DNA of 64,000 nt from Streptomyces sp. SID13726. GTDB taxonomy: Bacteria; Actinomycetota; Actinomycetes; Streptomycetales; Streptomycetaceae. The stretch spans positions 186,001 through 250,000 of the forward strand of contig NZ_JAAGLY010000004.1 in assembly GCF_010548375.1 (NCBI RefSeq), written 5' to 3'. The translations under genes and the position numbers were made by a program. The notes beneath the pieces were generated by a model. That model did not search any database, was not told the DNA's origin, and was given only the letters and a program-made list of their open reading frames with translations. How positions within the stretch are numbered: position 1 is the first letter of the stretch; each line of letters starts with the position of its first letter. Shown here piece after piece: positions 42,177 through 53,228 of this stretch.

Positions 42177-42755
42177 GTGAGCAGTAATCCCGTCACCGTC
42201 ACCGTGGCCTATCAGGTGGTGCCGGGCCGTGATGCCGACTTCCACTCGTGGGGGTGGGCCATGCTGGCCGCGAGTTCGCGGCAGCCGGGTTTCCTGGGGG
42301 GTGGCGTCCTTGTCGACCGAGAGGCGGAGTGGCATGTGGTCTATCGCTTCGCCAGCGAGGGAACGGCCCGGGCCTGGGAGGATTCGACCGCCCGGACGCA
42401 GTGGGACGCCCGGGTGGTGGGCTTCGCCCGGCAGACGGAGCGCAGGAGCGTGCGGGGCACCAAGGTGTGGTTCGATTCCCAGACCACTGCTCCGAAGGCA
42501 CCCGCACCGCCGGCGAAATGGAAACTGTGGTTCGTGAACATGAGCGCGGTCTTTCCGCCGGTGCTCCTGTTCAATCTGATCGTTCTTCCTTATCTGGGCG
42601 GACTTAATCCGCTCGTCCGCACGCTGCTGTTGTGCCTATGCGTGACGGCTCTGGTCACCTGGATTCTTATGCCCCGGCTTCAGCGTTTCTTCAAGAAATG
42701 GCTGTATCCACCGCTCCAGGCACTTCGCGGACGGCACAAAAGACGGACCGCATAG
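42177..42755 (+). CDS. antibiotic biosynthesis monooxygenase-like protein with two C-terminal membrane helices
   Basis: 192 aa from GTG 42177. Residues 1-100 are an ABM ferredoxin-like domain: VTVTVAYQVVPGRDADFHSW, AASSRQPGFLGG, EWHVVYRFASEGTARAWEDS. Residues 110-165 hold two membrane helices and the end is very basic (RGRHKRRTA). This fused form is known in bacteria as a membrane ABM protein without a defined reaction; classical ABM domains oxidise polyketide phenols or handle heme. It lies 29 bases before pabAB and opens the operon, so it is likely part of the pathway. Confidence 0.75.
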   Translation: MSSNPVTVTVAYQVVPGRDADFHSWGWAMLAASSRQPGFLGGGVLVDREAEWHVVYRFASEGTARAWEDSTARTQWDARVVGFARQTERRSVRGTKVWFDSQTTAPKAPAPPAKWKLWFVNMSAVFPPVLLFNLIVLPYLGGLNPLVRTLLLCLCVTALVTWILMPRLQRFFKKWLYPPLQALRGRHKRRTA

Positions 42756-42784
42756 GTCCGGAACGAACCGAGGGAGGTGGGCGG

Positions 42785-45061
42785 GTGAAGACCCTGCTCA
42801 TCGACAATTACGACTCGTACACGTACAACCTGTTCCAGCTGGTCGCCGAGGTCAACGGCGAGGAACCGGTCGTGGTCCTGAACGACGCCGTCGACTCGAT
42901 TCCCGATCTCGGGACGTATCTCGCGGAGTTCGACAACGTCGTCGTGTCGCCGGGGCCCGGGCATCCGGGCCGGCCGCGTGATTTCGGCCTGAGCAGCGCC
43001 GTCATCGCACAGGCGCGCATTCCCGTACTGGGAGTGTGCCTGGGACACCAGGGAATCGCGCTCGGGGAAGGCGCTTCGGTGGAGCCCGCCCCGGAACCGC
43101 GGCACGGGCATCTGTCGGCGGTCCGGCACGACGGACGGGATCTGTTCCGGGGGCTGCCGCAGGGTTTCACCGCGGTCCGCTATCACTCCCTGGCCGTGTC
43201 CGAGCCGCTTCCCCGGACGCTGGAGGCCACCGCCTGGGCCGAGGACGGGGTGGTGATGGGGCTCAGGCACCGGAGCCGGCCGTTGTGGGGGGTGCAGTTC
43301 CACCCGGAGTCCGTGCTCACCGACTTCGGTCACCGGATGCTCGTCAACTTCCGCAATCTCACGGCGGAACGGGCCCGTAAGCCGCGCACGAAGAACACCG
43401 CGGTCACCCCGGACGCGGCGGCCGTCCCCCGGCCCGCGCCGGTGATCCCGCGCCCCCGGCGGGCCACCCCCGCCTACCGGCTGCACACCCGGCGGATCGC
43501 GGGCGCGGTGGACGCGGAGGCCGCGTTCACCCGGATGTACGCGGCGTCGAAGCGGGCGTTCTGGCTGGACAGCGCGCTGGTCGAGGAGGGGCGGGCGCGG
43601 TTCTCGTTCTTCGGTGACGACACGGGGCCGCTGGCGGAGTTCGTGCGGTACGACGTGGAGAGCGGCCGGTGCGAGATCGAGCGGGCCGGCCGGCCGCCGC
43701 GGAAGGTGTCGGCGAGCGTCTTCGACTATCTGGGGCGGCAGTTGAAGAGCCGTCGGGTGGACGGTGGCGGGCTGCCGTTCGACTTCACCGGGGGCTATGT
43801 CGGCTACTTCGGCTACGAGACGAAGGCCGACTGCGGATCGCCGAACCGGCACTCCTCCGAAGTCCCGGACGCCTGCTGGCTGTTCGCCGACCGGTTGATC
43901 GCCGTGGACCATCTGAAGCGGTTCACCTACGCGGTCTGTCTCGCCGAGGACACCCCGCAGGCCGCGCGGGAGGCCGAGGACTGGCTGGAGGGCGCGCTGG
44001 CCCAGCTGACCTTCGTCACCACCGAGCCGCAGCAGACGGCACCCGCCACGCAGCCCGATCCCGACCTCGGGGCCGCCGAGCCGTGGCTGGTGCGGGACCG
44101 GGCGACATACCTCGCCGACATCGAGGCGTGCCGGCGGGAGTTGCGGGCGGGGACCAGTTACGAGGTCTGTCTGACGAACGCGGCCCGGTTACCCGCACCG
44201 CCGGACGCGTACGAGTTCTACCGGGTGCTGCGCCGGGTCAACCCGGCTCCGTACGGGGCGTTTCTGAGGTTCGGGGACGTCGACGTGGCCGGTTCGTCGC
44301 CGGAGCGGTTTCTGCGGATCACCCGGGACGGGATCGCCGAGGCCCGGCCCATCAAGGGCACCGCACCGCGTGGGAGCGGTCCTGAGGAGGACGCCCGACT
44401 GCGGGACGCGCTGGCCTCGGACGCCAAGACGCGGGCCGAGAACCTGATGATCGTCGACCTGCTCCGCAACGACCTGGGGCGGGTGTGCCGGACCGGTTCG
44501 GTGCGGGTGACCCGGCTGATGGCCACGGAGACGTACGCGACCGTGCACCAGCTCGTCTCCACCGTGGAGGGGCGGCTGCGGGAGGGCACCGACGCGGTGC
44601 AGTGCGTACGGGCCTGCTTCCCCGGCGGTTCGATGACCGGGGCGCCCAAGCTGCGCACGATGGAGATCATCGACTCCCTGGAGACGGAGGCCCGCGGTGT
44701 CTACTCCGGTGCTCTCGGCTACCTGGGGTGCAGTGGGGGCGCGGATCTCAACATCGTGATCCGTACGGCGGTGTTCGCGGACGGGCTGATGCATCTGGGG
44801 GCCGGGGGCGCGATCGTCCTCGACTCCGATCCGGTCGCCGAGTACGACGAGATGCTGCTGAAGACGGCGGCCCAGATGCGCGCCCTGCACCTGTACACGG
44901 CGGACCGGATAGCGGAGCAGCGACAGCGGACGACGGCTCGCGACGACGCACATCGCGGGCACGCGGGCACGGCCACGGTCAGGGCCACAGCCGCCAGCAC
45001 CGCCGCCACCGTAGCCACAGCCGCTACCACGGCCGCCACCACCGAGGAGCCGGTCCGATGA
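42785..45061 (+). CDS. pabAB: aminodeoxychorismate synthase, fused PabA-PabB
   Basis: 758 aa from GTG 42785 (GGGAGG upstream). The N-terminal glutamine amidotransferase (1-200) has LIDNYDSYTYNLFQL, nucleophile Cys in GVCLGHQGIAL and WGVQFHPES. The C-terminal chorismate-using part (about 240-710) ends with SPERFL, PIKGTAPRG, NLMIVDLLRNDLGRV, PGGSMTGAPK and LDSDPVAEYDE. The Lys in PIKGT marks aminodeoxychorismate synthase rather than anthranilate synthase, which has Ala. It converts chorismate and glutamine to 4-amino-4-deoxychorismate. Fused forms like this typify Streptomyces antibiotic clusters. The last 45 residues are an Ala/Thr-rich low-complexity tail. Confidence 0.94.
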   Translation: MKTLLIDNYDSYTYNLFQLVAEVNGEEPVVVLNDAVDSIPDLGTYLAEFDNVVVSPGPGHPGRPRDFGLSSAVIAQARIPVLGVCLGHQGIALGEGASVEPAPEPRHGHLSAVRHDGRDLFRGLPQGFTAVRYHSLAVSEPLPRTLEATAWAEDGVVMGLRHRSRPLWGVQFHPESVLTDFGHRMLVNFRNLTAERARKPRTKNTAVTPDAAAVPRPAPVIPRPRRATPAYRLHTRRIAGAVDAEAAFTRMYAASKRAFWLDSALVEEGRARFSFFGDDTGPLAEFVRYDVESGRCEIERAGRPPRKVSASVFDYLGRQLKSRRVDGGGLPFDFTGGYVGYFGYETKADCGSPNRHSSEVPDACWLFADRLIAVDHLKRFTYAVCLAEDTPQAAREAEDWLEGALAQLTFVTTEPQQTAPATQPDPDLGAAEPWLVRDRATYLADIEACRRELRAGTSYEVCLTNAARLPAPPDAYEFYRVLRRVNPAPYGAFLRFGDVDVAGSSPERFLRITRDGIAEARPIKGTAPRGSGPEEDARLRDALASDAKTRAENLMIVDLLRNDLGRVCRTGSVRVTRLMATETYATVHQLVSTVEGRLREGTDAVQCVRACFPGGSMTGAPKLRTMEIIDSLETEARGVYSGALGYLGCSGGADLNIVIRTAVFADGLMHLGAGGAIVLDSDPVAEYDEMLLKTAAQMRALHLYTADRIAEQRQRTTARDDAHRGHAGTATVRATAASTAATVATAATTAATTEEPVR

Positions 45062-46761
45062 CGACTCCGCATACCGTGCTGCCGCCGGCCGACGCCGCCA
45101 CCTCCGACACCTCCGACACCTCCGGCACCGACCCATCTGGCCCCTCCCATACCTCCAATACCGCCACCGGCACCCCCGCCTCCCACCCCTCCGACACCCC
45201 CGGCAATCTCGCCGCCCAGCTCGCCGATCTCGCCGAGCGGCGCGGTTGGGGCGGGCGGCCGGCCTTTCATCAAGGGCACCGGGTCTGGACCCACGGTGAG
45301 GTGCACGCCCTGGCGGCCGGGGCGGCGAGTGTGCTGGCCGGGTACGGCGTGCGGCCGGGTGACCGGGTGGTGCTGGCGTTGCCTGACGGGATCGCGTGGG
45401 TGACGGCCTTCCTGGCCGTCGCGCGGGTCGGGGCGGTCGCCGTGCTGGTCAACCCCGAACTCCCGGCGGCGGACCACGCGTTCGTGGCAGCGGACACCTC
45501 GGCCGTGCTGTGTGTGACGGGGCCGGGGCTGGAGGACAGGTTCGCCGACCGGGCGCGGCTCGGTGCCGACCAGCTGCTCGCGCTCACCGCCTCCGCCGAA
45601 CCGGCCCCGGCTCATCCGGTGGACGCGCACGCGCCGTTGTACGTGCAGTACACGTCGGGCACCACGGGCCGCCCCAAGGGGGTCGTGCACACGCACGGCG
45701 ACCCGAAGGCGTATCACGACCTGATCGGGCGGCGGCTGCTGCGGATCACCGGGGACGACGTGACGCTGTCGGTGTCGAAGCTGTACTTCGCCTACGGATT
45801 CGGGAACGCGTTCGTCTTCCCGCTGTTCTCCGGGTCCTCGGCCGTGCTGGTGGACCGGCGCCCGAACCCGGCCGCCGTGGACGAGCTGGTGGCCCGGCAC
45901 CGGGTGACGCTGCTGTACTCGGTGCCGTCGGCGTACGCGGCGCTCGTGGCCGACCGGGGCAGCGGGCACGAGGCCTGTTTCGCCTCGGTGCGGGCCGCGG
46001 TGTCGGCCGGTGAGGGGCTGCCGGAGGAACTGGGCAAGCGGGTCACCGAGTTGCTCGGCGCGCCGGTGCTGGAGCAGATCGGCTCCACCGAGGCCGGTCA
46101 CGCCTTCTGCGCCAACAGCTTCGACCACAACGCTCCGGGCACCGTCGGGCGCCCCGTGCCCGGCTTCGAGGTGGAGCTGCGTGACCGCGCGGGCCGTCCG
46201 GTACCGGACGGTGTGGAGGGCGAGCTGTGGGTGCGCGGTCCGACGGTGACCCCGGGCTATCTGAACCGGCCCGAGGAGACCGAACGCACCCTGGTCCGCG
46301 GCTGGTTGGCCACGCACGACCGGGCGGTGCGGGAGCCCGACGGCGCCTACCGGCATCTGGGCCGAGCCGACGACATGGAGATGGTCGGCGGCATCACCGT
46401 CTCCCCGCTGGAGGTGGAGGCCGTGCTGCGCACCCACCCGGCGGTGAAGGAGGTCGCGGTCGTGGCCGTCATCGACGGGACCGGGGTGGGCCGGCTGCGG
46501 GCGTTCGTCGTACCCGCCGCTCAGAGGGACAGCGCCGAACTCCCAAGCCCCCCAGGCCCCCAAGGCACCCAGCGCCCCCGAGGACTCCAGCCCGCCCAGG
46601 GCCTCCAGAACCTCCAGAACCTCCAGGAGGAGCTGTTGAAGCTCGCCCGCGAGCACCTGGCCGCGTTCAAGGTGCCCAGGAGCGTCAGCCTCGTCCCCTC
46701 CCTCCCCCGCACCGCCACCGGCAAGCTCCGCCGCCACCTGGTCCGCCAAGGCGCCTGGTGA
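45058..46761 (+). CDS. benzoate-CoA ligase family enzyme, candidate aminobenzoate-activating
   Basis: 567-aa class I adenylate-forming enzyme starting in an ATGA overlap with pabAB. The P-loop is YTSGTTGRPKGVVHTHG, then SKLYFAYGFGNAFVFPLFSG, which is typical of benzoate-CoA ligases, EQIGSTEAGHAF, and the C-terminal domain hinge GRADDMEMVGG with the catalytic Lys in TATGKLRRHLV. It probably activates 4-aminobenzoate or a derived acid as AMP ester or CoA thioester. Residues 10-50 are Ser/Thr/Pro low complexity, and a Gln/Pro-rich insertion with QNLQNLQE repeats sits in the C-terminal domain. Confidence 0.88.
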   Translation: MTTPHTVLPPADAATSDTSDTSGTDPSGPSHTSNTATGTPASHPSDTPGNLAAQLADLAERRGWGGRPAFHQGHRVWTHGEVHALAAGAASVLAGYGVRPGDRVVLALPDGIAWVTAFLAVARVGAVAVLVNPELPAADHAFVAADTSAVLCVTGPGLEDRFADRARLGADQLLALTASAEPAPAHPVDAHAPLYVQYTSGTTGRPKGVVHTHGDPKAYHDLIGRRLLRITGDDVTLSVSKLYFAYGFGNAFVFPLFSGSSAVLVDRRPNPAAVDELVARHRVTLLYSVPSAYAALVADRGSGHEACFASVRAAVSAGEGLPEELGKRVTELLGAPVLEQIGSTEAGHAFCANSFDHNAPGTVGRPVPGFEVELRDRAGRPVPDGVEGELWVRGPTVTPGYLNRPEETERTLVRGWLATHDRAVREPDGAYRHLGRADDMEMVGGITVSPLEVEAVLRTHPAVKEVAVVAVIDGTGVGRLRAFVVPAAQRDSAELPSPPGPQGTQRPRGLQPAQGLQNLQNLQEELLKLAREHLAAFKVPRSVSLVPSLPRTATGKLRRHLVRQGAW

Positions 46762-46901
46762 CCCGGCAACGAAAGCACCCCGGACGCGCCCCCGCCGGCA
46801 CCCTCAACTCCCCCTCCCCCAACATCCCCGCCCTCACCCCCATCTCCCCCATCTCCCCCGACACCCCCACAACCACCCCCACCGCAGAGAGGAACAGCCC
46901 C

Positions 46902-48464
46902 ATGCGAGAGCAACAACCCCCCTTCGCCGACCGGGGGTTCTACCTGGGCCCGGTGTTCCGCCGGGCGGCCGATCGGCACGGCGCTGTGTTCGTCACTCTG
47001 GACCGGCCGCTGGACACCCACCCGGGACTCGGTGTCGACCTCACCTACGCGGTGCTGGCGGAGGTCGTCGAGGAGTTGTCGGGGCGGCTGTGGGAGGCGG
47101 GGGTACGGCCCTCGGAGCAGGTGGTCCTGCACAAGACGGACAACGTCGACATCGTGCTGCTGACCTGCGCGATATCCCGGATCGGCGCGGTGCCGGTGCT
47201 GCTCTCCCCCGGTCTGGCCGGTGAGGTGGCCGGGGAGCTGATCGAGCGGCTCAGGCAGCCGTGGCTGGTGACCGACCGGGCCAAGCTGGAGGGTCCGCTC
47301 AAGGGGGTCGGGCTGCGGGTCCGGCAGGTCCTGTCCGTGGACGAGGCGCCGGGGGCCCACCGCCTCGCGGAGTACGCCGGTTCCGAGCCGCCCGCTCCGG
47401 TACGCCTGCATCCGCGCGAACCGGCGCTGATCACCCACAGTTCGGGCACCACCGGGCTCCCCAAGCTGGCCGTGCACTGCGCGAACACCATGTGGAACCG
47501 GCTCGTTCCGCAGAAGGCGATGGGCTGGCCGACGCGTGGGGAGACGGCGGCGCTGCACATGTCGTTCGTGCACTCGCGCTTCTACCATCTGCTCGGCGTG
47601 CTGCTGCACTTCGGCAGTCCGCTGGTGCTGATCACCGACCCGGACCCGGCCGCTGTGGGACCGCTGCTGACCAGGCACCGGCCCGGGATCGTGGAGACGC
47701 ACCCCAACACCTTCGTGCTGTGGGAGGAGTTGGCCGACGCGCCCGGGGCGCCGCTCGCGCGGGTGCGGTCGTACGGCTCGACGTTCGACGCGATCCATCC
47801 GCGCACGGTACGGCGGCTGCTGGACGCCTCGAAGCGCCGTACGCCCTGGCTCGTCCAGCTGTACGGGCAGAGCGAGACCGGGCCGGTCGCCTTCCAGTGG
47901 TTCACCCGGCGCAGTGCAGCCCGGGCGGACGGCCGGCGGGTCGGCATCGGGATACCGGGCTTCACCCGGGTGCGGGTCACCGGCTCCGACGGACGGCCCG
48001 CGGCACCCGGGACCACCGGGCGGATCGAGGCCCGCACCCGGGGCCGCATCCTCACCTACCTCGGCATGCAGGACCGCTACGAGCGTCAACTCAACGACGG
48101 CTGGTGGGAGATGGGTGACATGGGCTACCGCAGCCGCCTCGGCACCCTGCATCTGATCGACCGGGAGATCGACCGGATCGACTCCGTGCACAGCAATCTC
48201 GAGGTCGAGGACACCCTGATGGAGCGCCTGGAGGAGCTGCGTGAGGTGGTCATCGTGCCGGGGGCGGACCGGGAGCCGGTGCCGGTGGTGTGTGTGCGGG
48301 GCGAGCGGCCGCTGGACCCCGAGCGGTGGCGGGAGGCGACGGCCGATCTGCCGGCGATGGCCGAGCCCAGGCAGTGGCGGTTCGAGGAGCTGCCCATGAC
48401 CGCGACCTGGAAGGTGAAGCGGGTCGAGATCACCCGGATGCTCGCGGAGGGTGCGCGCACGTGA
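46902..48464 (+). CDS. second AMP-dependent synthetase/ligase
   Basis: 520 aa from ATG 46902 (GAGAGGA upstream). Adenylation motifs are THSSGTTGLPKLAVHC (P-loop), YGQSETGPVAFQW, GRIEARTRGRILTYLG, WWEMGDMGYRSRLG and the catalytic Lys in TATWKVKRVEI. It differs clearly from the preceding ligase, so it should act on another acid or a later intermediate; the region MSFVHSRFYHLLGVLLHFG forms the pocket wall. A C-rich 140-base gap separates it from the first ligase, and it overlaps the next gene by four bases. Two ligases and no NRPS or PKS suggest an amide, ester or CoA-bound modification route. Confidence 0.85.
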   Translation: MREQQPPFADRGFYLGPVFRRAADRHGAVFVTLDRPLDTHPGLGVDLTYAVLAEVVEELSGRLWEAGVRPSEQVVLHKTDNVDIVLLTCAISRIGAVPVLLSPGLAGEVAGELIERLRQPWLVTDRAKLEGPLKGVGLRVRQVLSVDEAPGAHRLAEYAGSEPPAPVRLHPREPALITHSSGTTGLPKLAVHCANTMWNRLVPQKAMGWPTRGETAALHMSFVHSRFYHLLGVLLHFGSPLVLITDPDPAAVGPLLTRHRPGIVETHPNTFVLWEELADAPGAPLARVRSYGSTFDAIHPRTVRRLLDASKRRTPWLVQLYGQSETGPVAFQWFTRRSAARADGRRVGIGIPGFTRVRVTGSDGRPAAPGTTGRIEARTRGRILTYLGMQDRYERQLNDGWWEMGDMGYRSRLGTLHLIDREIDRIDSVHSNLEVEDTLMERLEELREVVIVPGADREPVPVVCVRGERPLDPERWREATADLPAMAEPRQWRFEELPMTATWKVKRVEITRMLAEGART

Positions 48465-49630
48465 CACCGGTCGTGGTGGTCGGCGCCGGGCCCGTGGGCC
48501 TGTCGGCGGCGCTGGCGCTGCGGGCGCGCGGGCTGCCGGTCGTGCTGCTGGAGGCGGACCCGGAGGACCGTGAACGACCGGGCAGCCGGGCCCTGTTCGT
48601 GCACCGCGAGACCCTCGCGCTCCTCGACGGGATGCGGCCGGGGCTGGCCGGCGAGATCACCTCGTACGGGCGGACCTGGCAGACCCGCCGGACCCTGTAC
48701 CGGGGGCGCGAGGTGTACTCCCGCACCCATCCGCCGAGGCCGGGCCCGCCGCCGTTCACGAGCCTGCGCCAGGTCGACACCGAGCGTTTCCTGCGGGCGG
48801 CGTGCGAGGGAGCGGGGGTGGAGTTCGTGTGGGACACCCGGGTGCTCGACGTCCGCACCACCGCGTCCGGGGCGTGGCTGAGCTGCGGGGACGGCCGGGA
48901 GTGGAGCTGCGAGTACATCGTGGCGGCCGACGGCGCCCGGTCCGCCGTGCGGGGCGGGCTCGGTATCGCCATGGAGGGCGAGCGCGGCGAGGGATTCCAC
49001 GTGGTCGTCGACGTGGCCGATGTGCCGGGCGCCGAGCTGCCGTTGGAGCGGGTCTTCCACTACGAGCATCCGGGCACCGGGGGCCGCAGTGTGATGCGGG
49101 TGCCGTTCACCGGGGGCTTCCAGGTCGACCTCCAGTGCCGGGACGACGACCAGGAGGAGGACTTCGGCACCGAGGAGGCCGTACGGCGGTGGCTGCCCGC
49201 GGTCGTGGGCGAGGGGTACGACGAGCGCGTCCTGTGGGTGTCGACGTACCGCTTCCTGCGGAAGGTGGCCGCGTCCTTCACCGATCCGCACCGGCGGGTG
49301 CTGCTGGTCGGGGAGGCGGCGCATCTCTTCCCGCCGTTCGGGGCGCGGGGCATGAACAGCGGCATCGCGGACGCGGCGGCCGCGGCGGAGGCCGTCGCGG
49401 AGGGGACCGTGGAGGCGTTCGCAGGGGTACGACGGTCCGCCGCGCTGTTCAACAGTGCCGCCGCCGGTACCGCGCTGGACCATCTGCGGCCCCGGCGCCG
49501 GATCGTGCGGGTCGGGCAGCGGGCGGCCGCGGCGCTGGCGCCGGTGCTGCCGTGGTGCGGGTCGTGGCTGGAGCACGCGCCGTACGGGCCGCGGCACGGA
49601 TCGCCGGTGGTCGCCGGCGGCAAGTACTGA
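48461..49630 (+). CDS. FAD-dependent aromatic monooxygenase (PHBH fold)
   Basis: 389 aa from GTG 48461 in a GTGA overlap. The FAD motifs are VVVVGAGPVGLSAALALRAR (GxGxxG), AADGARSAVRGGLG (the DG motif) and LLVGEAAHLFPPFGARGMN (the GD-type motif, here GE). These are the hallmarks of class A flavoprotein hydroxylases that act on phenols and aminobenzoates. In this operon it most likely hydroxylates, or oxidatively decarboxylates, p-aminobenzoate or its activated form. The C-terminus is basic and needs no membrane. Confidence 0.9.
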   Translation: MTPVVVVGAGPVGLSAALALRARGLPVVLLEADPEDRERPGSRALFVHRETLALLDGMRPGLAGEITSYGRTWQTRRTLYRGREVYSRTHPPRPGPPPFTSLRQVDTERFLRAACEGAGVEFVWDTRVLDVRTTASGAWLSCGDGREWSCEYIVAADGARSAVRGGLGIAMEGERGEGFHVVVDVADVPGAELPLERVFHYEHPGTGGRSVMRVPFTGGFQVDLQCRDDDQEEDFGTEEAVRRWLPAVVGEGYDERVLWVSTYRFLRKVAASFTDPHRRVLLVGEAAHLFPPFGARGMNSGIADAAAAAEAVAEGTVEAFAGVRRSAALFNSAAAGTALDHLRPRRRIVRVGQRAAAALAPVLPWCGSWLEHAPYGPRHGSPVVAGGKY

Positions 49631-49643
49631 GGAAGGAACGGCT

Positions 49644-50483
49644 GTGACACAACCGGTCATCGCTCAGGGGCTGTTGGCGTGGTCGCCGAGCCGTGGGCTG
49701 ACCCCGGCGGCGGAGGCGACGGCGCCCTTGCTGGTCGCTGACTCCTGGCTGGTACGGGACGGCAGGGTGCGCGGGCTCGAACGGCACCGGGAGCGGTTCC
49801 TGCGGTCCTGCGGGGAGGTCGGCGGGCCGCCGTTGCGCAGGCTGCTGGAGTTCTGGCGGGACATGACCGACGCCCTGCCCCGCACCGGAGAGTGGTTCCC
49901 CCGGGTCGAGCTGGCCCCCGAGTTCCGTACGGGGACGGCGGACCCCGAGTCGCACGCCTCGCCCCGGGCCCTGGAGCTGCACCTCCTGTTGCGGCACGCT
50001 CCCCCGCTGGGGACCGACGTACGGGTCTGGGCTGCGGGTCAGTCCGATCCGCGGGCCGTGCCCCGCCGCAAGGGGCCGGACCTGGGCGCGCTCGCCCGGG
50101 TTCGGGAGCGGGCGTCCGGTGCGGGCGCGGAGGAGGCGGTGCTGGTCGCGCCGTCCGGCGCCGTGCTGGAGGCGGCCACCGCCAGCGTGCTGTGGTGGGA
50201 GGACGACACCCTGTGTCTGCCGCCGCCCCGGCTGCCGGTGCTGCCCGGGGTGACCGTGGCGCTCATCCAGGACCGGGCCCGGCGCGAGGGCCTTCGTGTC
50301 GACCACCGCGAGCGGACCGTGGCCGAGTTGGACGGCCGTGAGGTGTGGCTGGTCAACGCGCTGCACGGGATCCGGCCGGTGACGGGCTGGATCGGCGGGC
50401 CGCTCGAAGCGGCACCGGCGAGGCGCGCCCCGGAATGGCGGGCGTGGCTCGACGACATCATGGAGCCGCTGCCGGAGAAATAG
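49644..50483 (+). CDS. pabC: class IV aminotransferase fold, aminodeoxychorismate lyase-like (PabC)
   Basis: 279 aa from GTG 49644 (GGAAGGAA upstream). The fold-type IV PLP signature has the Lys in PRRKGPDLGALARVRE, EEAVLVAPSGAVLEAATASV, and the end EVWLVNALHGIRPVTGW, which fits aminodeoxychorismate lyase rather than a branched-chain aminotransferase. It would remove pyruvate from 4-amino-4-deoxychorismate to give PABA, completing the route begun by pabAB five genes earlier. It is followed by a T-free purine tract and a hairpin that end the operon. Confidence 0.85.
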   Translation: MTQPVIAQGLLAWSPSRGLTPAAEATAPLLVADSWLVRDGRVRGLERHRERFLRSCGEVGGPPLRRLLEFWRDMTDALPRTGEWFPRVELAPEFRTGTADPESHASPRALELHLLLRHAPPLGTDVRVWAAGQSDPRAVPRRKGPDLGALARVRERASGAGAEEAVLVAPSGAVLEAATASVLWWEDDTLCLPPPRLPVLPGVTVALIQDRARREGLRVDHRERTVAELDGREVWLVNALHGIRPVTGWIGGPLEAAPARRAPEWRAWLDDIMEPLPEK

Positions 50484-50555: not shown

Positions 50556-50586
50556 ACGGGCATCGGGAATTCACGCCGATGCCCGT
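50556..50586. terminator. bidirectional terminator between pabC and a CMD gene
   Basis: Arms ACGGGCATCGG (50556-50566) and CCGATGCCCGT (50576-50586), a perfect 11-bp stem around a 9-base loop GAATTCACG. It lies between two convergent genes, 8 bases from the stop of the minus-strand CMD gene, and can serve both. Confidence 0.82.
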
Positions 50587-50594
50587 GTTCCCCG

Positions 50595-51080
50595 TTATTT
50601 CTTGACCGGCTGATAACCCCCGGGAACCATCCGGGTCGCGATGGCGATCCGGTTGTACGCGTTGATGACGGTGGCCGCCCAGATCAGCGCCGCGAGCTGT
50701 GTCTCGTCGAAGACCTCGGCGGCTTCGGCGTAGACGGCGTCCGGGACCTGGCCGTCGTGGACCAGGGTCACGGACTCGGTCAACGCCAGTGCGGCGCGCT
50801 CGCGTTCGGTGAAGAAGGGGGTCTCCCGCCAGGCGTTCAGGGCGTAGATCCGCTGCTCGGTCTCGTCCGCGGCGCGGGCGTCCTTGGTGTGCATGTCGAG
50901 GCAGAACGCACAGCCGTTGAGCTGCGAGGCGCGGATCCGGATCAGTTCCAGGAGTTCCGGTTCGACCTTGGCCTCCTGGGCCGCGGAAACGGCGGCGGTG
51001 TGCAGGGAGCCCATCGCCGCGGACACGTGGGGGGTGATTTTCTTCAGGGCCACACGGGATATGGCTGCGCTATCGCTCAT
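50595..51080 (-). CDS. carboxymuconolactone decarboxylase (AhpD-like) family protein
   Basis: 161 aa. The AhpD-type redox motif CxxC is in LNGCAFCLDMHTKDAR, followed by WRETPFFTERERAALALTESVT and NAYNRIAIATRM. Such proteins are small helical peroxidase or reductase units that use the two Cys as a thiol-disulfide pair. It is the first of three related genes within 3 kb (the others at 52731 and 53225) and shares this motif and the ERERAALALTE block with them. It is monocistronic and convergent with pabC. Confidence 0.9.
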   Translation of the reverse strand: MSDSAAISRVALKKITPHVSAAMGSLHTAAVSAAQEAKVEPELLELIRIRASQLNGCAFCLDMHTKDARAADETEQRIYALNAWRETPFFTERERAALALTESVTLVHDGQVPDAVYAEAAEVFDETQLAALIWAATVINAYNRIAIATRMVPGGYQPVKK

Positions 51081-52730: not shown

Positions 52731-53228
52731 ATGACCACTGAAGAGATCACCGAGTACGCGGCCGAGCGGCCGGCCAGGTTGAGCTGGGCCCAGCTGGCCC
52801 CCGACGTCTACAAGGCGATGGCGCGTCTCGACACGGCCGCCAAGAAGGGTCTCGACCCCCGTCTGGTGGAGCTGGTGCGGCTGCGCGCGTCCGCGCTCAA
52901 CCACTGCGCGTTCTGCCTCGACATGCACACCAAGGACGCGCTCGCGGCGGGCGAGAGCGTCCAGCGGATCGTGCAGCTGAACGCGTGGGAGGAGTCGCGG
53001 CACTTCTACACGGACAGGGAGCTCGCCGCGATCGAGCTGACGGAGGCGGTGACCGTCCTGACCGACGGTTTCGTGCCGGACGCGGTGTACGAGAGGGCGG
53101 CCAAGCACTTCGAGGAGGCCGAGCTGGCGCAGCTGATCGCCACGATCGCGGTGATCAACGCATGGAACCGGTTCGGCGTGACCTCCCGTATGACTCCGGG
53201 CCACTACGAGGCCGGGAAGCACCAGTGA
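52731..53228 (+). CDS. carboxymuconolactone decarboxylase (AhpD-like) family protein
   Basis: 165 aa. It has the same build as the 50595 gene: SALNHCAFCLDMHTKDALAA with the CxxC pair, then ESRHFYTDRELAAIELTEAV and NAWNRFGVTSRMTPGHYE. It is first of a three-gene unit facing away from the MocR gene, and its stop overlaps the next start as GTGA. AhpD-type activity on peroxides or an organic substrate is likely. A decarboxylase role is not implied by the family name. Confidence 0.9.
   Translation: MTTEEITEYAAERPARLSWAQLAPDVYKAMARLDTAAKKGLDPRLVELVRLRASALNHCAFCLDMHTKDALAAGESVQRIVQLNAWEESRHFYTDRELAAIELTEAVTVLTDGFVPDAVYERAAKHFEEAELAQLIATIAVINAWNRFGVTSRMTPGHYEAGKHQ

What the first reader, a model, noticed from the sequence alone, without database searches (positions are those of the whole stretch)
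42177..50483. Compact p-aminobenzoate-derived biosynthetic cluster of unknown product
Seen: six co-directional genes (membrane ABM protein, fused PabAB, benzoate-CoA-ligase-type enzyme, a second AMP ligase, FAD aromatic monooxygenase, PabC-like lyase) with 4-base overlaps at several junctions, an AT-rich start and a terminator at the end. Known: fused PabAB with PabC supplies PABA for candicidin-type and chloramphenicol-type antibiotics. Here no PKS, NRPS, prenyltransferase or N-oxygenase of the AurF type is adjacent. Inference: PABA is activated by one ligase, oxidised by the flavoenzyme and joined to or exchanged with a second acid activated by the other ligase. I do not recognise the gene combination as a published cluster.
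Basis: partly seen in the sequence, partly recalled or inferred. Interest (0 to 1): 0.78.

Follow-up and report, generated by a model that had tools for sequence, protein, structure and literature searches.

The report
PABA diazotisation operon of Streptomyces
A conserved Streptomyces operon appears to make the vitamin precursor PABA and then turn its amine into a reactive diazo (nitrogen-nitrogen) group with nitrite, a compact and apparently undescribed version of known diazo-antibiotic pathways.

Summary
The six co-directional genes are real (42177-50483). Of 54 named loci of at least 20 kb, 53 carry all six in order, and 53 have a seventh gene (AhpD/CMD, 50595-51080 minus) right after them.

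The reading changes at one gene. The "second AMP ligase" D (46902-48464) looks like a nitrite-activating enzyme, not a carboxylate ligase. Its best sequence match among solved structures is Tri17, an N-N bond former. The diazotase CmaA6 is its top structural match, though fold does not discriminate. Of its 45.5-54.5% identical homologues, 41 of 73 lie within 25 kb of nitrosuccinate lyase.

The sister D clade sits in plasmid clusters with PabAB-C-D-E-F, CMD and CreE-CreD. PabAB-C-F also occurs beside a polyketide synthase without D or E, so it looks like a PABA supply-and-activation module.

Best reading: PABA is made, activated, oxidised by the flavoenzyme and diazotised by D. The operon has no nitrite genes of its own. 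No activity was tested; the product is unknown. The open library searched held no paper on it. New variant of a known kind.

The parts
42177..42755 (+). A: ABM-domain protein with a two-segment hydrophobic C-terminal tail; role unknown
   Evidence: Pfam ABM 22.8 bits (cut-off 23.1); hydropathy; conserved with the operon; no match among the 35 pADI95-16a cluster proteins compared
42785..45061 (+). B: fused PabAB, aminodeoxychorismate synthase
   Evidence: GATase and chorismate_bind Pfam; TIGR00553 over cut-off; PIKGT motif visible in the translation (homologues)
45058..46761 (+). C: benzoate-CoA-ligase-type enzyme, inferred to activate PABA (or its hydroxylated form) at the carboxylate
   Evidence: TIGR02262 374.3 bits (cut-off 375.25); nearest PDB benzoate-CoA ligase; 56% identical ligase sits in a PabAB-C-F triad beside a PKS
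46902..48464 (+). D: predicted ATP- and nitrite-dependent diazotase of the CreM/Tri17/CmaA6 kind
48461..49630 (+). E: FAD aromatic monooxygenase (class A), inferred ring hydroxylase
   Evidence: Pfam FAD_binding_3; PDB relatives; model mean pLDDT 79
49644..50483 (+). F: class IV PLP enzyme, inferred aminodeoxychorismate lyase
   Evidence: Pfam Aminotran_4; NCBIfam PabC models matched far below cut-off; homologues in PabAB gene groups
50556..50586 (.). hairpin (possible terminator) between F and the convergent AhpD gene
   Evidence: not listed by the consensus scan (loop of 9 nt)
50595..51080 (-). G: AhpD/carboxymuconolactone-decarboxylase-family protein; seventh member of the cluster
   Evidence: Pfam CMD, TIGR00778; within 1.5 kb after F in 53 of 54 loci; same strand, directly after F, in L119 and L121; 62% homologue in the pADI95-16a cluster

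Best explanation
A compact PABA-diazotisation operon. B and F turn chorismate and glutamine into PABA. C activates PABA or its oxidised form as a CoA thioester or adenylate. The flavoenzyme E oxidises the ring, most likely next to the amine, which would stabilise a diazo group. D uses ATP to activate nitrite and attach it to the aromatic amine, giving a diazo (diazonium or quinone-diazide) product or an intermediate that couples or loses N2. Nitrite is not made by the operon; it comes from cell nitrite, for example from nitrate reductase. Shown by computation: the gene set, its conservation, the family of D, and the linkage of a homologous gene set to nitrite synthesis genes in a sister cluster. 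Inferred: the substrates of C, D and E, the order of steps, and the product.
For: (1) D's best hit among 177,635 distinct PDB sequences is 8TF7/9BQ0, which the review PMC11705231 names as Tri17 (passage). The D model's first Foldseek and VIA match is CmaA6, titled 'ATP-dependent diazotase'. (2) In 295 Streptomyces genomes, 41 of 73 D homologues at 45.5-54.5% identity lie within 25 kb of a nitrosuccinate lyase over its curated cut-off; that is 30 of the 47 genomes that hold these 73 (some are paralogues in one cluster or repeats at both chromosome ends). Random expectation about 0.18%. (3) On pADI95-16a one cluster carries PabAB 61%, C 57%, D 56%, E 59%, F 47% and CMD 62% identical to the window's, plus a CreE-like gene and CreD (798 bits, cut-off 650); the Mg1 plasmid has the same set. 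(4) The operon's D clade is sister to these plasmid D's (99/93), and next comes NBC_00388 (99/96), whose record shows 'pcaB' and an FAD/NAD(P)-binding protein side by side (that pair was not tested against the CreD model). (5) L147 pairs PabAB (56%) and a D homologue (51%) with CreE-like and CreD-like genes. (6) The adenylation Glu and Lys are invariant in 70 of 70 D-family rows, and the A8 Gly of CoA ligases is Asp in 69 of 70; the window's own C keeps Gly (of 72 rows, C and one 29% outlier were left out). (7) PabAB-C-F occurs beside a type I PKS without D or E in the 20-kb stretch seen, which points to PABA as C's substrate.
Against: No nitrosuccinate lyase over cut-off lies within 25 kb of any of 41 loci of the >=60% clade. 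Genomes with the operon do not carry one more often than others (13 of 40 against 67 of 255, Fisher p 0.45), nor a CreE homologue (25 of 40 against 124 of 255, p 0.13). The own genome has no nitrosuccinate lyase over cut-off; its best match is PcaB in a pca operon. D is only 21-26% identical to CmaA6 and Tri17 and is far below the NCBIfam AvaA6 diazotase cut-off (77 against 975 bits). The next distinct PDB entry after Tri17, 9XB8, is named 'Fatty-acid-CoA ligase FadD' (85.5 bits) and outranks CmaA6 (73.5). Fold does not discriminate: ordinary ANL ligases score within about 1 Z of CmaA6, and an amide synthetase is Foldseek rank 2. 'CreE' is my label by similarity and position beside CreD; no curated model matched it. 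Roles of A, E and G are guesses.
Confidence: 0.66

Rival explanations
1. Diazotisation-dependent deamination: D diazotises the PABA amine, which is then replaced by hydride or hydroxyl with loss of N2, so that the operon makes benzoate or hydroxybenzoate and C converts it to the CoA thioester.
For: The ava and cma pathways do this with a diazotase and a reductase (PMC10777205, PMC11705231 passages). C's nearest solved relatives are benzoate-CoA ligases.
Against: E is a monooxygenase-type flavoprotein, and none of the seven genes was recognised as an AvaA7-like reductase, though no search for one was run. The PKS-linked PabAB-C-F triad points to PABA as C's substrate.
Confidence: 0.16
2. One reading: D activates a second carboxylic acid or acts as an amide synthetase, joining it to PABA or hydroxy-PABA.
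For: The ANL amide synthetase McbA is Foldseek rank 2 for the D model. A PDB entry named FadD is the next distinct sequence match after Tri17. The operon lacks nitrite genes.
Against: Best sequence match, gene neighbourhood and tree all place D among nitrite-linked homologues. The A8 motif differs from that of C.
Confidence: 0.12
3. The operon only supplies an activated, oxidised PABA unit to an assembly line elsewhere in the genome.
For: A PabAB-C-F triad is next to a type I PKS in S. angustmyceticus.
Against: A, B, C, D and E have matches in 54 of 54 full-length loci (F in 53) while the flanking genes that were traced vary. PKS genes in the flanks or elsewhere in the own genome were not searched for.
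Confidence: 0.06

Closest known systems
Cremeomycin (cre) and CreM-type diazotase pathways
   Same: An aminobenzoate-type arylamine and an ANL-superfamily ATP-dependent diazotase using nitrite (PMC11705231 and PMC11429834 passages).
   Different: The aminobenzoate there comes from CreH/CreI via 3,4-AHBA, here it should be PABA; cre carries CreD and CreE, this operon does not. CreM itself could not be aligned here.
Penzonemycin (pzm) cluster
   Same: Chorismate-derived aminobenzoate plus Pzm18, described as a CreM homologue of 527 aa, with CreD and CreE homologues (PMC9323291 passages). Several fetched loci with D homologues of about 50% identity (e.g. L123, L124, L159, L160) also combine an anthranilate-synthase-like gene, CreD and CreE.
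   Different: Uses an anthranilate-synthase-like Pzm6 leading to 3-hydroxyanthranilate; of 9 such genes in the fetched loci, 8 show PISGT (none found in the ninth) where PabAB here has PIKGT.
pADI95-16a / pSMg1-1 / S. goshikiensis plasmid clusters (product unknown to me)
   Same: PabAB-C-D-E-F in the same order plus CMD (pADI95-16a; Mg1; for S. goshikiensis only D and PabAB seen).
   Different: Adds CreE-CreD, a second E-like enzyme, fatty-acyl-AMP ligase, three desaturases, ACP, P450, and an AMP-binding protein with an aldehyde dehydrogenase; A not found.
Avenalumic and p-coumaric acid (ava/cma) diazotases
   Same: ATP-dependent diazotisation; 72 of 134 ava-related clusters also lack avaE/avaD (PMC10777205 passage).
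   Different: Act after a type II PKS on 3,4-AHBA-derived acids; D fails the AvaA6 model cut-off.
PABA-starter-type PKS clusters (PabAB plus ligase plus PabC-like)
   Same: PabAB-C-F triad, e.g. S. angustmyceticus plasmid p1.
   Different: No D, E, A or AhpD gene annotated or matched in the 20-kb stretch seen there; no PKS among the operon's genes.

Membership tests
CreM/Tri17/CmaA6-type ATP-dependent diazotases (for D) | Sequence closer to characterised members than to ordinary CoA ligases | tested here: met
   Tri17 124.8 bits against 68.7 for the best 4-chlorobenzoyl-CoA ligase entry; but an entry named FadD (9XB8, 85.5) lies above CmaA6 (73.5); identity to Tri17 only about 25%
CreM/Tri17/CmaA6-type ATP-dependent diazotases (for D) | Catalytic adenylation residues (CreM E352 equivalent in the YGxxE motif, A10 Lys) | tested here: met
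   E325 and K504 in 70 of 70 family rows; E352 role from PMC11705231; equivalence by motif, CreM not aligned
CreM/Tri17/CmaA6-type ATP-dependent diazotases (for D) | Nested among homologues linked to nitrite synthesis genes | tested here: met
   41 of 73 next-nearest homologues near CreD; sister clade with CreE-CreD
CreM/Tri17/CmaA6-type ATP-dependent diazotases (for D) | CreD/CreE in the same cluster | tested here: not met
   0 of 41 loci of the >=60% clade have CreD within 25 kb. Common but not obligatory: 72 of 134 ava-like clusters lack them (PMC10777205)
CreM/Tri17/CmaA6-type ATP-dependent diazotases (for D) | Nitrite- and ATP-dependent diazotisation in vitro | not testable with these tools
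   No assay
AvaA6 equivalog (NF058622) | Score over curated cut-off | tested here: not met
   77.4 bits against 975
Aminodeoxychorismate synthase, fused PabAB (for B) | TIGR00553 pabB cut-off | tested here: met
   347.7 against 328.4 bits; PIKGT motif present (translation)
Aminodeoxychorismate lyase PabC (for F) | Score over a curated PabC model | tested here: not met
   Best PabC-model scores 49.3 and 48.1 bits, cut-offs 253 and 273; Pfam Aminotran_4 met. The role is inferred from neighbourhood only
Benzoate-CoA ligase family TIGR02262 (for C) | Score over curated cut-off | tested here: inconclusive
   374.3 against 375.25 bits

The most novel reading that the evidence does not exclude
The operon is the first recognised PABA-based diazo pathway. 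It is a stripped-down descendant of larger clusters, makes a reactive diazo compound (for example a 3-hydroxy-4-diazobenzoate or its CoA ester) from a vitamin precursor, and takes its nitrite from nitrate respiration or assimilation rather than from a dedicated pathway, so that diazo formation would be switched on by nitrate. It is found in about one in seven Streptomyces species sampled (40 of 295, decayed copies included).
Probability: 0.35. Interest if true: 0.78.

Novelty: new variant of a known kind. Interest (0 to 1): 0.6.

Why it matters
Diazo natural products are rare, reactive and hard to isolate. A small operon whose D gene is present in 40 of 295 sampled Streptomyces genomes, and whole in 53 named loci, would be an easily tested source of a PABA-derived diazo, azo or hydrazone metabolite and of a new diazotase acting on simple aminobenzoates. 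The related loci also suggest how diazotases may get nitrite: from CreE-CreD in many clusters and perhaps, in three fetched loci with no CreE-CreD in the stretch seen (L139, L144, L146), from a cluster-borne nitrate reductase (two of the three checked and best matched to NasC, below its cut-off).

Tried and rejected
Second acid ligase or amide synthetase for D: kept as a rival, not favoured. Linked or co-occurring nitrite genes as support for the compact operon: rejected, no linkage and no enrichment. L120 (G069), which at first looked like a minimal PabAB-D-PabC operon and so like proof that D acts on PABA: rejected, because its D has lost the A3 motif and no PIxGT motif was found in its PabAB, so it is probably a decaying copy. 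L122 (G180) also looks broken; its D is shorter than full length. Own-genome CreD match: rejected as PcaB, with pcaHG-type and pcaDC-type neighbours recognised by eye. Fold comparison for D: consistent but not discriminating. CreM itself was not aligned: I had no copy of its sequence, and the 2018 CreM paper is not in the library. The MocR-type regulator and EamA transporter beside the operon are not part of it: present in 29 and 32 of 54 loci.

Papers: searches. Passages seen in PMC11429834, PMC11705231, PMC10777205, PMC9323291 and PMC13061610; all other papers seen only in search listings. Most subscription literature is not in the library, and supplements were not opened, so 'undescribed' is limited to this. 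The meaning of the A3/A8/A10 motifs and of the PIKGT signature, and gene names given to window neighbours by eye, are recalled. 'CreE' is my label for the gene beside CreD (length and position; no curated model matched).


Full report
WHAT IS THERE. The window lies in genome G000, contig C444 186001-250000; its relatives by D are Streptomyces. Six co-directional genes occupy 42177-50483: A, an ABM-domain protein with a hydrophobic tail; B, fused PabAB; C, a benzoate-CoA-ligase-type enzyme; D, a second AMP-forming ligase; E, an FAD monooxygenase; F, a class IV PLP enzyme of PabC kind. Four-base overlaps occur at B/C and D/E only. A strong hairpin follows F and then a convergent AhpD/CMD gene, 50595-51080.

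CONSERVATION. A search for D in named genomes found 92 relatives and kept the best 80 loci. Of 54 with at least 20 kb, 53 have A-F complete and in order, and 53 have the AhpD gene within 1.5 kb after F; L092, the exception to both, lacks a match to F but does hold the AhpD gene. Of all 80, 61 show all six genes; several of the other 19 are contigs that end inside the operon. The MocR gene next door is found in 29 and the EamA gene in 32 of 54. In two diverged versions (L119, L121) the AhpD gene is on the same strand directly after F. So the unit is seven genes. Among 295 Streptomyces genomes, 40 carry D at 60% identity or more, 41 loci, decayed and partial copies included. In a sample of 396 genomes of the phylum, homologues at 1e-100 occur in 5, in 2 of 236 genera.

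WHAT D IS. The best solved relatives by sequence are 8TF7 and 9BQ0, named Tri17 in PMC11705231 (passage): a CreM homologue that joins nitrite to nitrogen. The third distinct hit is an entry named FadD (9XB8) and the fourth, 8ZTZ, is titled 'ATP-dependent diazotase CmaA6'. CmaA6 is also first for the predicted structure (mean pLDDT 91.5; Foldseek; VIA Z 41.8). Other ANL enzymes score almost as high, so the fold alone decides nothing. Neighbourhood says more. Nitrosuccinate lyase (NF052556) over its cut-off lies within 25 kb of 41 of 73 D homologues with 45.5-54.5% identity (30 of 47 genomes), of 1 of 4 in the 42.5-45.5% band and of 8 of 32 listed in the 36-42.5% band. A random place has about 0.18%. 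For the operon's own clade it is 0 of 41.

LINK TO PABA AND NITRITE TOGETHER. On pADI95-16a the block PabAB (61%), C (57%), D (56%), E (59%), F (47%) appears in the operon's order, with CMD (62%), and about 10 kb upstream of PabAB lie a CreE-like gene and CreD (798 bits, cut-off 650). The Mg1 plasmid has the same set, and S. goshikiensis plasmids carry similar D and PabAB. In the tree the operon's D is sister to the ADI95-16 and Mg1 D's (99/93), then to the D of plasmid NBC_00388 (99/96), where an FAD/NAD(P)-binding protein and 'pcaB' lie side by side. A third case, L147, has PabAB (56%), a D homologue (51%), a flavin hydroxylase-like gene, CreE-like (54%) and CreD-like (601 bits, below cut-off) genes in 14 kb. 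The simplest history is that the operon derives from a nitrite-linked cluster and lost that linkage; the tree is rooted by midpoint only.

C AND THE PABA MODULE. In S. angustmyceticus plasmid p1, PabAB (63%), C (56%) and F (53%) stand together beside a type I PKS and a diiron oxygenase, without D or E in the 20 kb seen. That stretch also holds an FAD/NAD(P)-binding protein 34% identical to the CreE-like gene, so it may have N-N chemistry of its own. B-C-F looks like a portable unit that makes and activates PABA; D-E is the added chemistry.

MECHANISM. Proposed: chorismate to PABA (B, F); activation (C); ring oxidation (E); ATP-dependent nitrite activation and diazotisation (D). D keeps the adenylation Glu and Lys (70 of 70), while the A8 Gly of CoA ligases is Asp in 69 of 70 family rows, in keeping with no thioester step. 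E's closest solved relatives are aromatic hydroxylases and related flavoenzymes. Order and regiochemistry are inferred. A (ABM) and G (AhpD) have no assigned step.

NITRITE. The own genome has no nitrosuccinate lyase over cut-off; the best match is a pca-operon PcaB. It has a CreE-like gene without CreD in the 20 kb around it (60%). CreE homologues at 1e-150 occur in 149 of 295 genomes and are not enriched with the operon. The own genome has narG over cut-off. In seven fetched D-homologue loci a gene of one BLAST cluster, a molybdopterin oxidoreductase where checked, lies nearby. The two run against NCBIfam best match NasC (730 and 745 bits, under the 1100 cut-off), each with a NarK/NarU-type transporter beside it, and L139 has two proteins similar to the N-terminal part of NirB. 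L139, L144 and L146 show no CreE-CreD in the stretch fetched. Nitrate reduction as nitrite source is therefore plausible, not shown.

AGAINST. No enrichment of CreD or CreE in genomes with the operon; D is distant from Tri17 and CmaA6 and fails the AvaA6 model; F fails the PabC models; the product is unknown.

NOVELTY. Searches listed no paper on a PABA-diazo cluster in the open library (listings, plus passages of the papers named). Diazotase clusters as a kind are known; a PABA-based, nitrite-gene-free, seven-gene form is a new variant.

Noticed in passing
L139:11776-17847, L144:11304-17536, L146:3062-7906; also L125, L127, L143, L158: D homologues co-cluster with a molybdopterin oxidoreductase (NasC-like in the two checked), NirB-like flavoproteins and, in six of the seven loci, a transporter of the NarK-like group: a possible cluster-borne nitrite source instead of CreE-CreD.
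   Followed up: partly
G000:C11:202976-204796 (L197:9911-11992): A CreE-like aspartate-N-hydroxylase homologue (60%) without CreD nearby; CreE homologues at 1e-150 occur in 149 of 295 Streptomyces genomes while CreD over cut-off occurs in 80.
   Followed up: partly
L120 (G069), L122 (G180): Apparently decaying copies of the operon: lost adenylation motif and missing genes in L120, interrupted frames in L122.
   Followed up: no
L166:1277-19501: D homologue with type III PKS, Orf2-type prenyltransferase, DegT aminotransferase, two O-methyltransferases, CreD- and CreE-like genes: a meroterpenoid-like diazo cluster.
   Followed up: no
L131:8233-19001: D homologue (39%) with 3,4-AHBA-type aldolase and DHQ-synthase II genes, prenyl diphosphate synthase, DXS and a partial CreD match.
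   Followed up: no
L189 (NZ_CP107949.1 59385-84917): Plasmid cluster with a D homologue, an annotated anthranilate synthase, annotated paaA, paaB, paaC and paaD, and a gene pair that may be CreE/CreD.
   Followed up: no
L191:15722-17635 (S. angustmyceticus plasmid p1): A CreE-like protein (34%) beside the PabAB-C-F triad and a type I PKS.
   Followed up: no
window 52731-53228: A second AhpD/CMD-family gene, about 50% identical to homologues of the one beside the operon, 1.6 kb further on.
   Followed up: no
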